Assembly: GCA_945871815.1 (NCBI GenBank)
Contig: CAMBXM010000006.1
Location: 1-51,513, forward strand
Direction: 5' to 3'
Source: Singulisphaera sp. GP187
GTDB taxonomy: Bacteria; Planctomycetota; UBA1135; UBA2386
Length of the DNA: 51,513 nt
Shown here: one piece after another, positions 46,460 to 51,075 of the stretch
Layout: the number at the start of each line of letters is the position of its first letter
How positions within the stretch are numbered: the first letter of the stretch is position 1
The notes under the pieces: model-generated
The model's input: only the letters and a program-made list of their open reading frames with translations
What the model was told of the DNA's origin: nothing
Databases searched by the model: none
Made by a program: the position numbers and the translations under genes

Positions 46460-47032
46460 CTACTTCTTCGGCAGAACGATCTTCGTCGGCAGCGGTTTGC
46501 CTTCAGGCACGAACCGCATCGAGATCGAGTTGACGCAGTGGCGGGTGTCCTTTGCCGTCATGCGCTCGCCGAAGAACACGTGTCCTAGATGCCCATCGCA
46601 GTTGGCGCACACGATCTCCGTGCGCATGCCGTCCGCGTCGGTGTGCCGAGTCACGGCGCCCGCGATCTCGTCGTCAAAGCTCGGCCAGCCACAGCCGCTG
46701 TGGAACTTCGACTTCGACTCGTAGAGCGGCGCGTTGCACTGGCGACACACGTAGGTGCCCGAGCTTTCGTTGTCGGTGTACTCACCGGTGAACCCTCGCT
46801 CCGTGCCCTTCTGGAGCAGCACGCGCGCTTCCTGCGCGGTGAGTGCGTTGTAGCCCTTTGGCATTTCGGGACTCGGAATGTGTTCGGCCATGGTGGGTGC
46901 AGCAGAGTTGGTGATCTGGCTCGGGTCAGCGGTTCCGGACGACTGCGCCGAGCGCGTATCCGATTCGCTCGCGTTGCATCCAGCGAACAGCAGAACGGAT
47001 AGGGACAGGATAGTCGCGAAAGCGTGGTTCAT
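46460..47032 (-). CDS. msrB: Peptide-methionine (R)-S-oxide reductase, lipoprotein form
   Basis: A 190-residue MsrB that reduces methionine-R-sulfoxide in proteins. Catalytic Cys166 is in TRHCVNSISMRF, and the likely resolving Cys114 is in FHSGCGWPSF. The structural zinc is held by two CxxC pairs, Cys96/99 in CRQC and Cys142/145 in CANC. Unlike cytosolic MsrB, the protein begins with a lipoprotein signal (ILSLSVLLFAGC, lipid Cys19) and a 30-residue Ser/Thr linker, so it repairs envelope proteins. It is the last of three minus-strand genes (dihydrouridine synthase, cupin, msrB), 89 bp after the cupin start. Reducing power in the periplasm would have to come from a DsbD-like carrier not seen here. 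Confidence 0.95.
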   Translation of the reverse strand: MNHAFATILSLSVLLFAGCNASESDTRSAQSSGTADPSQITNSAAPTMAEHIPSPEMPKGYNALTAQEARVLLQKGTERGFTGEYTDNESSGTYVCRQCNAPLYESKSKFHSGCGWPSFDDEIAGAVTRHTDADGMRTEIVCANCDGHLGHVFFGERMTAKDTRHCVNSISMRFVPEGKPLPTKIVLPKK

Positions 47033-47121: not shown

Positions 47122-47445
47122 CTACCCGCCGAGCAACGCGATGCCTTCGTGCGCCACCGCGAACAAGATGCACTCCTCGCCATCCTCCAGTGCTACTGGC
47201 GCATGCGTCGTGCCGTCCTCGTAGCGGACGAACTGACCTTGGCGGTGTTCGCCCATCGCATCGCGGTAGCCGCCCTGGATCACCAGCACTTCTTCTGGCC
47301 CCTTGTGCCGATGCGCTGGATAGCCACAACCTGGCTGCATGCCGATGAGCGCCACGACACGGCCGGTCGCCTTGTCGCTGCTATAAAAGTGCACGCGAAC
47401 GCCTTCGTACCGTGTCGCCCGCCAGGGGATCGCCGAGACATCCAT
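47122..47445 (-). CDS. Cupin (ChrR-like) protein
   Basis: A 107-residue single-domain cupin. The two cupin motifs are visible: GCGYPAHRHKGPEEVLVIQGG, with His-x-His and Glu as metal ligands, and a second half with GQFVRYEDGTTHAPVALEDG, in which the last His would be a ligand. The layout suits ChrR-like cupins that act as small metal-binding sensors or enzymes. No sigma factor lies beside it, so a ChrR anti-sigma role is not supported. It starts 24 bp after the dihydrouridine synthase stop, so the two probably share an mRNA. Confidence 0.83.
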   Translation of the reverse strand: MDVSAIPWRATRYEGVRVHFYSSDKATGRVVALIGMQPGCGYPAHRHKGPEEVLVIQGGYRDAMGEHRQGQFVRYEDGTTHAPVALEDGEECILFAVAHEGIALLGG

Positions 47446-47469: not shown

Positions 47470-48579
47470 TCAGCCGTGCGCGACCGCGACTTCGCCAGCT
47501 TCGCCGGATTGCGGTGGATCGGTCTCGAAGATCTGCATGCAACTCGCGATCGCGTCTTCGTCGCTGGCCGACGCCCAGAACGAGGCCGCGAGTTTGGCGT
47601 GCACCGTCTCACGCGGGTCGCGCAAGACCGCCTCGAGCGGCGACACCTCGCCGAGATCCGGCATGCGCGTCTGCATCAACGGGTGCTGCTTGCTCTGGTC
47701 GCGATACTGGGCAGCCGGCAACGGGCGGTAGCGGCAGAAGAATCCGAAGTGCCACGGCAAGAAGAACATCGCGCGTTTGCGGCCCTTCTCGTCATCGCGG
47801 AAGTGCTCCTTCATGTAGTGGAGGAACTGGCGATAGATCGTGACCCGCTGCTCGGCGGTCGGCTCGAACTCCTTCTGCTCTTTGATCTCTCGGAACAGCC
47901 AGGGCTTCATCAAGGCACCGCGACCGACCATGATCGATGCGCAGCCCGAACGAGCCTGCATGTCGGCGGCCTCGTACCAAGTCAGAATGTCGCCGTTGCC
48001 GATCACCGGGATCGTTCGCTCGCTGACAATCGTCGCGATCGCGTCCCAGTCGGCGGCGCGCGTGTAGCGCTGCTCGCGCGTGCGGCCATGAACGGTCAAG
48101 GCCGCTGCACCAGAGTCCTCGACGATCTTCGCGATCTCACTCGCGTTCTTGTCGCTCTCGCTCCAACCAAGGCGAATCTTGACCGTCACCGGGACCGGCA
48201 AGCCCTTGACCATCGCCTGAACGAGGCGGCCGAGATGCGCTGGGCGCTGCAGCAAGGTGGCTCCCATCCCGCGTCGCACGACGTCGTGGATCGGGCAGCC
48301 GCAGTTGAGGTCGACGAACGCAGCCCCGCGCTCGACCGCGGCGAGACCGGCGGCCACTGCCGGCTCGGCCTTGCTCGCCGCGATCTGGACGCCGAAACAA
48401 GCCTCGTCCGCGTGCTTCCGCAGCAAGGCAAGTTCAGTCGGCTTGTTGCGCAAGACTTGCCCCGCGTAGGCCATCTCTGACGTGGTCGTCGCGCAGTCGT
48501 AGGCGACGCAGAGTCGCCGGAAGGGCAAGTTGCCACCCTTGGTAAGGGGGGCGAGGATGACGCGACCACGGAAGTCCAT
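47470..48579 (-). CDS. tRNA-dihydrouridine synthase, Dus3-like
   Basis: A 369-residue FMN enzyme that reduces uridine to dihydrouridine in tRNA. It has the catalytic Cys95 in DLNCGCPIHDVV, Lys134 in VTVKIRLGWS, His164 in LTVHGRTREQRYT and the FMN phosphate site PVIGNGDILT. The sequence reads like eukaryotic Dus3 rather than bacterial DusA/B/C: APLTKGGNLPFRRLC, TSEMAYAG, GRGALMKPWLFREIKEQ and REQRYTRAADWDAI each have a near copy in Dus3 as I recall it. Eukaryotic Dus3 adds D at position 47 of tRNA. The zinc-finger N-terminus of Dus3 is absent. The ATG at 48579 begins the conserved part. It heads the dus-cupin-msrB unit and faces the 48704 gene across 124 bp. Confidence 0.86.
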   Translation of the reverse strand: MDFRGRVILAPLTKGGNLPFRRLCVAYDCATTTSEMAYAGQVLRNKPTELALLRKHADEACFGVQIAASKAEPAVAAGLAAVERGAAFVDLNCGCPIHDVVRRGMGATLLQRPAHLGRLVQAMVKGLPVPVTVKIRLGWSESDKNASEIAKIVEDSGAAALTVHGRTREQRYTRAADWDAIATIVSERTIPVIGNGDILTWYEAADMQARSGCASIMVGRGALMKPWLFREIKEQKEFEPTAEQRVTIYRQFLHYMKEHFRDDEKGRKRAMFFLPWHFGFFCRYRPLPAAQYRDQSKQHPLMQTRMPDLGEVSPLEAVLRDPRETVHAKLAASFWASASDEDAIASCMQIFETDPPQSGEAGEVAVAHG

Positions 48580-48703: not shown

Positions 48704-49195
48704 ATGCTGGCCGACATGGTCGTCTCGTCTCCCCGTTACGCCACGGCACTCCTGTGCCTTTGCACCCTCGCCCTCCTCGCCGCCGTCCAACCCGTCGCCG
48801 CACCAGCCGGCCCCGGCAAGGAACAAGGCCACCTGGTCCTGGTCGTCGAAGGCGATGTCACGTCGCTGCGCATCGTGCGCGCCGTCGCCAAAGCCGACGA
48901 CTGGGGCGGTACGCAGAAAGGCCTGCAGTCCGAGTTCGCCTTGCGCGCACTCGACGCCGACGGCAAGGACCTAATCAGCGTTCCGATGGACTTGTCGCGG
49001 TTCGACACCGACCCGGCCCACATCGGCAAGCAAGACCAAGTGAACGGCTGCGAGGTCCGAAGTGCACGCGTCGGCCTGTTGCTCAACATTCCGCGCGTCG
49101 ACGGCGTCGCCAGCTACCAGTTCGTGCGCGGCAAGACCGCCATCGGCGAAGCGACTGCAGACGCCGTGGCACAACTCCTATCGGAGAGCCGCTGA
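48704..49195 (+). CDS. Small secreted protein of unknown function, coupled to the M64-type peptidase
   Basis: A 163-residue protein with a signal (YATALLCLCTLALLAAVQP). The mature domain reads HLVLVVEGDVTSLRIVRAVA, then GLQSEFALRALDADGKDL, SVPMDLSRFD and ARVGLLLNIPRVDGVASYQF, mostly beta. No family recognised. An in-frame ATG at 48716 is an alternative start. Its stop overlaps the peptidase ATG as TGATG. M64 peptidases often carry an N-terminal beta domain before the catalytic part; this small protein might be a separate version of such a domain, an inhibitor, or a partner. That is inference from position. Confidence 0.72.
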   Translation: MLADMVVSSPRYATALLCLCTLALLAAVQPVAAPAGPGKEQGHLVLVVEGDVTSLRIVRAVAKADDWGGTQKGLQSEFALRALDADGKDLISVPMDLSRFDTDPAHIGKQDQVNGCEVRSARVGLLLNIPRVDGVASYQFVRGKTAIGEATADAVAQLLSESR

Positions 49196-51075
49196 TGTTG
49201 CGGCGCACACTCGCGGTGTTGGGCATCGCCACCGCCGTGGCGTTCGCCCAGGCACCCATCGTCACGACGGTGCTCAACAGCGGCTCGACGTCGACGCGCT
49301 ACGACATGGTGATCCTCGGCGACGGCTATCAGGCCCTGGAACAGGCGCGCTTCAACAGCGACGTCAACGCCTTCCTCGCCGGGCTCTTCGCCAAGACGCC
49401 CTACTCCGGCTTCACCCCGTGGTTCAACGTACACACGGTGTTCCGCGCCAGCGCTGACTCCGGGGCATCGCAACCGGACGTCACGCCACCGATCGTCAAG
49501 AACACTGCCTACAGTGCCTCCTACAACACTGGCGGCACGGCGCGTTGCCTCTACATCCAGAACACGTCGCAGGCGCTGGCCGACGCGGCACTCGCGCCCG
49601 CCAACGAAGGCCGCGTGCTGGTGATGGTCAATGACAGTCGCTACGGCGGCTGCGCCGGCCAATTCGCGGTCAGCTACAATGGCGCCTCGATGGTCGAAGT
49701 GCAGAGTCACGAACTCGGCCACTCTCTCGCCGGCCTCGCCGACGAGTACGACTACCCCAACAACCTCTACACCGGCAACGAGCCGACCCAGGTCAACATC
49801 ACAGCCAACAGCGTTGGCCAGAAGTGGTCACACTGGTGGGGCACGGAGAGCGTTTCGGCGTTCCAAGGCGGCGGCTACTACTTGCAAGGCCTGTGGCGGC
49901 CGCGCAACGACTGCCTGATGCGCAGCCTCGGCGTCACGCTTTGCCCGGTGTGCCGCGAACAGATCACCAAATCGGCCAGTTCGATCGTGAACACCATCGA
50001 CGCGCCGCAGCCTTCCGCAACGACGGTGACGGTGTCGCAGCCTGCCGTCCAGGCGTTTTCGTTCACGAACCTCGTGCCGGTGGCAAACAACCCGCTGATC
50101 ACCTGGAAGCTCGACGGTGTCGTCGTCGTCGGCCAGAACACGTCGGGGTTCTTCTTGCCGACCGCCGGCCTCTCACTCGGCAACCACACACTTGCCGTGG
50201 AAGTGCTCGACCGGTCCACACAGGTCCGCAACGACCCTGGCAACCTGATGCGTGACAGTCGCACCTGGACGGTGACCGTTACCGACCCGAGCGCGGCCAA
50301 CCTGCGCATCGGATCCATGCTGGTCGCGCAGCAGGTACTGCCAGGGAACGCCGAGACCGACGTGACGATCACGGTCGTCAACGACGGCCCGGCCCCGGCG
50401 AACAACATCTCGCTCGAGTGCTTCCTGTCAGTCGACACGACGGTTCAGACGAGCGATTTCTACCTCGGTCGCAGCGTGATCCCGACGCTTCTAGCTGGGC
50501 AGCAAACGACGATCGTGCGCCGCGTCCGCCTGCCGGCCGCAGCCAGCCCTCGCCTCTACAGCCTGCTGGCGACCCTCGATCGCGAAGGCGCGATCATGGA
50601 ATCGAGCGAAGCCGACAACACGCAACTTCGCTCGGTCCTGGTGCAGACCGGCCCCTGTGGACCGTTCCTGGAGTACCGCGATGATCTCGTCTACCCGCGC
50701 GACCAAAACTCCGTTTCGCTGACGAGCGGCGGCACCGTGCTGCCGACGATCGTGGCGCGCTGCGCCGCGCCCGGAACCCTCTATCTCATCGCTTGGGGCA
50801 CCAGCGGCACGTCGCCTGGCCTGCAGCTCGGCCCGGGCCTGCTCCTGCCGCTCAACTTCGACGCGAGCACGAGCACGAGCCTCGAGCTGCTGAACGGGCC
50901 GGTGTTCCAGTCGTGCTTCGGCGCGCTCGACGGCAACGGCTTTGCCAACGCGACGATCGCGTGGCCCGCAGCGCTGCCCCTGATCGCGACCCCTGGACAC
51001 TTCGCCGCCGTGCTCCTCGATCCGAGCTTGGCCATCATCGGGGTCACCAACGCGGTCGCGTTCGATCTGCAGTAG
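49195..51075 (+). CDS. Secreted M64-type (IgA peptidase-like) zinc metallopeptidase
   Basis: A 626-residue protein with signal TLAVLGIATAVAFAQ. The zinc motif HELGHSLAGLADEYDY lies near residues 180-195, with both His and the distal Asp-Glu typical of the M64 group, and RYDMVILGDGYQ at the start of the mature protein is also typical. NDCLMRSLGVTLCPVCREQI contains Cys residues of the family. After residue 270 come two beta domains, the second CARDB-like (LRIGSMLVAQQVLPGNAETD), then a C-terminal module ending in SLAIIGVTNAVAFDL, as in other secreted proteins of this organism. GGAG lies 8 bases before the ATG at 49195. It should cleave extracellular proteins; the substrate is unknown. Confidence 0.91.
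   Translation: MLRRTLAVLGIATAVAFAQAPIVTTVLNSGSTSTRYDMVILGDGYQALEQARFNSDVNAFLAGLFAKTPYSGFTPWFNVHTVFRASADSGASQPDVTPPIVKNTAYSASYNTGGTARCLYIQNTSQALADAALAPANEGRVLVMVNDSRYGGCAGQFAVSYNGASMVEVQSHELGHSLAGLADEYDYPNNLYTGNEPTQVNITANSVGQKWSHWWGTESVSAFQGGGYYLQGLWRPRNDCLMRSLGVTLCPVCREQITKSASSIVNTIDAPQPSATTVTVSQPAVQAFSFTNLVPVANNPLITWKLDGVVVVGQNTSGFFLPTAGLSLGNHTLAVEVLDRSTQVRNDPGNLMRDSRTWTVTVTDPSAANLRIGSMLVAQQVLPGNAETDVTITVVNDGPAPANNISLECFLSVDTTVQTSDFYLGRSVIPTLLAGQQTTIVRRVRLPAAASPRLYSLLATLDREGAIMESSEADNTQLRSVLVQTGPCGPFLEYRDDLVYPRDQNSVSLTSGGTVLPTIVARCAAPGTLYLIAWGTSGTSPGLQLGPGLLLPLNFDASTSTSLELLNGPVFQSCFGALDGNGFANATIAWPAALPLIATPGHFAAVLLDPSLAIIGVTNAVAFDLQ

What the first reader, a model, noticed from the sequence alone, without database searches (positions are those of the whole stretch)
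47470..48579. A bacterial tRNA-dihydrouridine synthase that looks like eukaryotic Dus3
Several stretches match eukaryotic Dus3 as I know it better than DusA, DusB or DusC: APLTKGGNLPFRRLC, NCGCPIHDVV, HGRTREQRYTRAADW and GRGALMKPWLFREIKEQ. The catalytic Cys, Lys and His are all there. Dus3 modifies U47 in eukaryotes, so this enzyme may target the same site. It could be a bacterial ancestor of Dus3 or a transferred gene.
Basis: partly seen in the sequence, partly recalled or inferred. Interest (0 to 1): 0.72.

Follow-up and report, generated by a model that had tools for sequence, protein, structure and literature searches.

The report
Bacterial relatives of eukaryotic Dus3
The gene encodes an intact tRNA-modifying enzyme of the kind that in yeast and humans (Dus3) makes dihydrouridine at tRNA position 47; this kind was thought to be eukaryotic only, but it turns up in several bacterial phyla.

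Summary
Window 48579..47470 (minus strand) is an intact 369-aa dihydrouridine synthase with all quoted motifs and the catalytic residues. It scores below NCBI's DusB cut-off (252 of 293 bits), while the same genome has a separate, called DusB. Full-length orthologues occur in 33 of 34 genomes of its Planctomycetota family and in none of 27 genomes from other families of the order. A scan of about 85,000 prokaryote species found 31 further relatives in records titled Acidobacteria, Bdellovibrionota, UBP9, Krumholzibacteriota, other Planctomycetota and others. Together they form a clade apart from DusA/B/C (100/100 with no eukaryotic sequence in the tree). Eukaryotic Dus3 joins that clade (96/99; 100/100 on the barrel alone), and yeast Dus1, 2 and 4 do not. 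The yeast and human sequences were recalled from memory, so this step needs repeating with database sequences. Eukaryotic Dus3 falls inside the bacterial group, but that nesting is not significant (AU p 0.48 and 0.32). The family shares the published Dus3 motif and an enlarged C-terminal helical region but lacks the zinc-finger N-terminus. Action on U47 is inferred: every scorable standard tRNA has U47, but none was assayed. Recent transfer from a eukaryote is unlikely.

The parts
47470..48579 (-). Dus3-type tRNA-dihydrouridine synthase, 369 aa, ATG start at 48579, stop included
48508..48555 (-). N-terminal signature LAPLTKGGNLPFRRLC (residues 9-24), the subfamily motif; published Dus3 motif LTTVGNPPFRR
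48292..48306 (-). NCGCP (residues 92-96) with catalytic Cys95
   Evidence: Asn92, Gly94, Cys95 and Pro96 invariant in alignment A3 of 31 members
48178..48180 (-). Lys134 of VKIRLGW, invariant active-site lysine
   Evidence: role from the known Dus mechanism
48064..48090 (-). HGRTREQRY (residues 164-172), with invariant His164 and Arg166 and the subfamily-typical REQRY
   Evidence: REQRY in 45/61 members, 0/29 other Dus
47893..47925 (-). GRGALMKPWLF (residues 219-229), end of the barrel; KPW[LI]F in 60/61 members
47521..47856 (-). enlarged C-terminal helical region (residues 242-353: helices 242-260, 264-281, 289-298, 314-319, 324-336, 340-353), conserved in the subfamily and alignable with Dus3

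Best explanation
The gene encodes a flavin- and NADPH-dependent tRNA-dihydrouridine synthase of the Dus3 type, in a compact bacterial form without the N-terminal zinc fingers of eukaryotic Dus3 (so 'Dus3-type', not Dus3 in the strict sense). Shown here: it is an intact Dus; it is one of three full-length Dus proteins in its genome and a different one from the resident DusB; it belongs to a bacterial subfamily spread over several phyla and separate from DusA/B/C. Shown with recalled eukaryotic sequences: eukaryotic Dus3 belongs with this subfamily and Dus1, 2 and 4 do not. Inferred: FMN sits in the barrel; NADPH reduces it; the reduced flavin passes hydride to the uridine with Cys95 as proton donor; and the target is U47 in the variable loop of tRNAs with a five-base variable loop, while the other Dus proteins serve the D-loop. 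The subfamily is most likely bacterial and old, and eukaryotic Dus3 is probably derived from it or from a shared ancestor.
For: Pfam Dus 242 bits. DusB model below its cut-off, 252 of 293 bits, while the genome's own C12 protein passes it with 328 bits. Three full-length Dus in the genome. Orthologue in 33/34 family members and 0/27 other-family genomes of the order. 31 further relatives in other lineages, most aligned over residues ~3-320 or beyond; all of those genomes carry further Dus matches. Bacterial clade 100/100 with no recalled sequence in the tree. With eukaryotic Dus3 included, the joint clade is 96/99 on the full length with Dus1/2/4 outside and 100/100 on the barrel alone. Dus3 motif and bit-score separation. 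C-terminal region aligns with Dus3. Fold is a Dus barrel with a helical domain and extra helices. All 23 tRNAs with a scorable five-base variable loop carry U47.
Against: The yeast and human Dus3 sequences were written from memory (the yeast one is 642 letters, shorter than the 668 residues implied by the paper), and no database copy could be reached. U47 is also the rule in bacteria that lack this enzyme, so its presence does not discriminate. B. subtilis makes D47 with DusB1 (PMC11162810), so D47 does not require a Dus3-type enzyme, and sequence class does not prove position. The zinc fingers that form part of eukaryotic Dus3 are missing. A single clade of eukaryotic Dus1-4 is disfavoured but not rejected (AU p 0.083).
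Confidence: 0.68

Rival explanations
1. It shares ancestry with Dus3 but modifies the D-loop (16, 17, 20 or 20a), as bacterial DusB/DusC enzymes do; the U47 specificity arose in the eukaryotic line, perhaps with the zinc fingers.
For: No zinc fingers; the solved Dus structures closest in fold include DusB and DusC; Dus position specificity is known to vary within a subfamily (E. coli DusB D17, B. subtilis DusB1 D17/20/20a/47, PMC11162810).
Against: The genome already has a DusB (328 bits) and a third Dus that could serve the D-loop; the barrel and C-terminal helical region, which shape tRNA binding, are the parts shared with Dus3.
Confidence: 0.24
2. It is simply a divergent DusB with convergent motif changes.
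For: DusB is the best NCBIfam model (252 bits) and E. coli DusB the best PDB sequence match.
Against: Below the DusB cut-off; a separate 100/100 clade against 29 other Dus proteins; shared C-terminal region and motif; co-occurs with a called DusB.
Confidence: 0.05
3. It is a recent gene transfer from a eukaryote.
For: High motif similarity to eukaryotic Dus3.
Against: Carried by 33/34 family genomes at 55-83% identity; relatives in several bacterial lineages; the two eukaryotic sequences lie on a long separate branch away from the Planctomycetota family clade; no zinc fingers.
Confidence: 0.02

Closest known systems
Eukaryotic Dus3 / DUS3L, tRNA-dihydrouridine(47) synthase
   Same: Barrel and C-terminal helical region align over most of the bacterial protein (37% identity); LT..GN.PFRR, REQRY and KPW[LI]F motifs; one clade in the trees that include Dus3.
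   Different: No N-terminal CCCH zinc fingers or disordered tail; bacterial; position specificity unmeasured. Comparison sequences were recalled from memory.
Bacterial DusB (TIGR00737)
   Same: Same Pfam family, catalytic residues and overall fold; best NCBIfam and PDB sequence match.
   Different: Below the DusB cut-off; different N-terminal motif (APMAGITDRPFR in E. coli); longer C-terminal region; separate clade; a true DusB coexists in the genome.
B. subtilis DusB1 (makes D17, D20, D20a and D47; PMC11162810)
   Same: The only bacterial enzyme that I found shown to make D47.
   Different: Described as a multisite DusB; its sequence was not included in the trees here.
E. coli DusC (D16)
   Same: Shares the NCGCP and HGRTKEQ-like stretches; 127 bits in the PDB sequence search.
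   Different: Lacks the N-terminal signature; long separate branch in the tree.

Membership tests
Dihydrouridine synthase family (Pfam PF01207, COG0042) | Dus barrel with catalytic Cys, Lys, His and Arg | tested here: met
   242 bits against a cut-off of 20.4; residues present and invariant in 31 members; fold
DusB (TIGR00737 equivalog) | score above the curated cut-off of 293.3 bits | tested here: not met
   252.3 bits; the genome's C12 protein meets it with 328.4
DusA / DusB / DusC | falls inside their clade | tested here: not met
   separate clade 100/100
Dus3 | subfamily motif LTTVGNPPFRR (Kasprzak 2012, PMC3674756) | tested here: met
   LTKGGNLPFRR: fits LT..GN.PFRR, not the published motif letter for letter
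Dus3 | falls in one clade with eukaryotic Dus3 | tested here: met
   96/99 and 100/100, with eukaryotic sequences recalled from memory
Dus3 | N-terminal CCCH zinc fingers | tested here: not met
   protein starts at the barrel; the upstream extension is not conserved
Dus3 | makes D at tRNA position 47 | not testable with these tools
   U47 present in 23/23 scorable five-base variable loops; activity not measured
Dus3 | eukaryotic distribution, as published | tested here: not met
   bacterial genomes of several phyla

The most novel reading that the evidence does not exclude
Eukaryotic Dus3 descends from a bacterial gene of this subfamily (nearest in the trees to Acidobacteriota-titled sequences), and D47 is a regular modification in several bacterial phyla. 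In the window's own family the enzyme may act together with a DTW-domain aminocarboxypropyltransferase to make acp3D47, a base so far reported only from trypanosome tRNA.
Probability: 0.12. Interest if true: 0.75.

Novelty: new variant of a known kind. Interest (0 to 1): 0.5.

Why it matters
The published phylogenies checked here place Dus3 in eukaryotes only and treat it as the ancestral eukaryotic Dus (PMC3674756, PMC9775027), and a 2022 review calls D47 in bacteria a single known case (PMC9176250). A bacterial Dus3-type subfamily would give Dus3 an outgroup, make its origin testable, predict D47 in many bacteria, and offer a compact enzyme without zinc fingers for the first Dus3-type structure (none was found in the PDB copy).

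Tried and rejected
Viral copies as a source of real Dus3-type sequence: none found in two scans of viral contigs. An exact DNA pattern for the signature across 392 genomes of the phylum hit only two, both in the same family; it is too strict to count absences, since other carriers in that family were missed. Partnership with a DTW-domain enzyme: present in 28/34 family genomes against 3/27 in other families of the order, and within about 3-7 kb of the Dus gene on the same contig in 11 genomes; but several conserved genes lie between (by sequence appearance a peptidase, a methyltransferase and a MobA-like protein) and the two are not in one operon, the pair co-occurs in only 7 of 31 carriers elsewhere, and the own DTW protein is only 25% identical to E. 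coli TapT and much longer. Kept as a lead, not as evidence. Looking for the recalled Dus3 peptides in papers found nothing.

Full report
Observation. Pfam assigns only the Dus family (242 bits). NCBIfam's best model is DusB, but at 252 bits against a cut-off of 293. The PDB sequence search gives E. coli DusB, DusC and human Dus2 as relatives. A search with recalled yeast Dus3 returned no chain named Dus3.

The genome. The window is contig C6 of an 87.6%-complete assembly. It holds three full-length Dus genes: this one, a DusB on C12 that passes the DusB cut-off (328 bits), and a divergent one on C226 (226 bits to DusB, below cut-off). Thirty-three of 34 genomes of the same family carry a full-length orthologue at 55-83% identity. 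The 27 other-family genomes of the order show only a generic 36-42% similarity, mostly over the barrel.

Distribution. A scan of one genome per species for about 85,000 prokaryote species kept 80 loci. Sixty-two of them are of this type: 31 of the window's family and 31 from elsewhere. The latter have record titles naming Acidobacteria/Vicinamibacteria, Bacteriovoracaceae and other Bdellovibrionota, UBP9, Dadabacteria, Deltaproteobacteria, Krumholzibacteriota, rumen bacteria and other Planctomycetota; the remaining loci are ordinary DusB types, after a drop in score. Some titles are doubtful. None of the 62 is titled archaeal. All 31 outside carriers have further Dus matches. The pattern-based scan will have missed divergent members.

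Trees. With 62 proteins and no recalled sequence, the 33 bacterial Dus3-type proteins form one side of a branch at 100/100 against 29 other Dus proteins including E. coli DusA, B and C. Adding recalled yeast Dus1-4 and human DUS3L, eukaryotic Dus3 joins the bacterial group (96/99) and Dus1/2/4 form their own group elsewhere. Using only the barrel columns and leaving out long branches, the joint clade is 100/100. Eukaryotic Dus3 sits inside the bacterial group, but a tree with the bacteria as one clade is not rejected (AU p 0.48; 0.32), so the direction of descent is open. A single eukaryotic Dus1-4 clade is 20.6 log units worse but not rejected (p 0.083). The recalled sequences are the weak point. 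The yeast one is incomplete (642 letters). It does carry the published Dus3 motif apart from one residue (LTTVGNLPFRR against LTTVGNPPFRR).

Anatomy. The motif form LT..GN.PFRR is in 41/61 members and 0/29 others; a looser form is in 60/61 and 0/29; REQRY in 45/61 and 0/29; KPW[LI]F in 60/61 and 2/29. Recalled yeast Dus3 scores 209-271 bits against all members and at most 157 against the others. The predicted structure is confident (pLDDT 93.4) and shows the Dus barrel followed by a helical region that runs to residue 353; the nearest solved folds are 1vhn, DusB and DusC. The C-terminal region aligns with that of Dus3. The zinc fingers of eukaryotic Dus3 are absent, so I call the protein Dus3-type and not Dus3.

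Function. Chemistry follows from the family: FMN, NADPH, Cys95 (established mechanism, not tested here). Position 47 is inferred from kinship with Dus3. Of 38 tRNA genes found, 30 distinct ones were read; all 23 with a scorable five-base variable loop carry U47. A review states that U47 is present in almost 90% of known bacterial tRNAs (PMC9176250), so this is a necessary condition only. B. subtilis shows that bacteria can carry D47, made by DusB1 (PMC11162810).

A lead. A DTW-domain gene (the family of TapT, which makes acp3U47 in E. coli, PMC6895100) is present in 28/34 family genomes against 3/27 neighbours and lies 3-7 kb from the Dus gene in 11 of them. Trypanosomes carry acp3D47 and have both enzyme types (PMC13210174). 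But the genes are not in one operon, the co-occurrence elsewhere is 7/31, and the window genome's DTW protein is only 25% identical to TapT. The family's genomes are related to each other, so the 28/34 may reflect a single event. It is a hypothesis to test, nothing more.

Verdict. The enzyme belongs to a bacterial Dus3-type subfamily that the Dus phylogenies read here do not describe (PMC3674756, PMC9775027; literature searches showed none that does, within an open-access library only). I recall from memory that at least one protein-family database groups some bacterial DusB proteins with Dus3, so the similarity may have been noticed before without being published. It is not a recent transfer. 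The U47 target is the best guess at roughly two in three.

Noticed in passing
G000:C106:781-1326; loci L190-L200: DTW-domain (TapT-like) gene in 28/34 family genomes, in 11 of them 3-7 kb from the Dus3-type gene; the own protein is about 400 aa, with a long C-terminal extension that E. coli TapT lacks.
   Followed up: partly
window 46460-47032 (-): By sequence appearance a methionine sulfoxide reductase B with a lipoprotein signal (LFAGC), with a small cupin-like ORF at 47122-47445 between it and the Dus gene, all on the same strand.
   Followed up: no
window 48754-51075 (+): ORF of a large secreted protein with an HELGHS motif that looks like an M64-type metallopeptidase, divergently oriented to the Dus gene; the neighbourhood is conserved in many family members.
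   Followed up: no
G000:C226:4668-5516 (L003): Third full-length Dus of the genome, on a very long branch and below every NCBIfam cut-off; its tRNA position is unclear.
   Followed up: partly
L052, L072, L092: Record titles look doubtful: L052 'Candidatus Kuenenia' carries a gene of the window's family, L072 'Burkholderiales' is nearly identical to UBP9 sequences, and L092 is titled 'Singulisphaera'.
   Followed up: no
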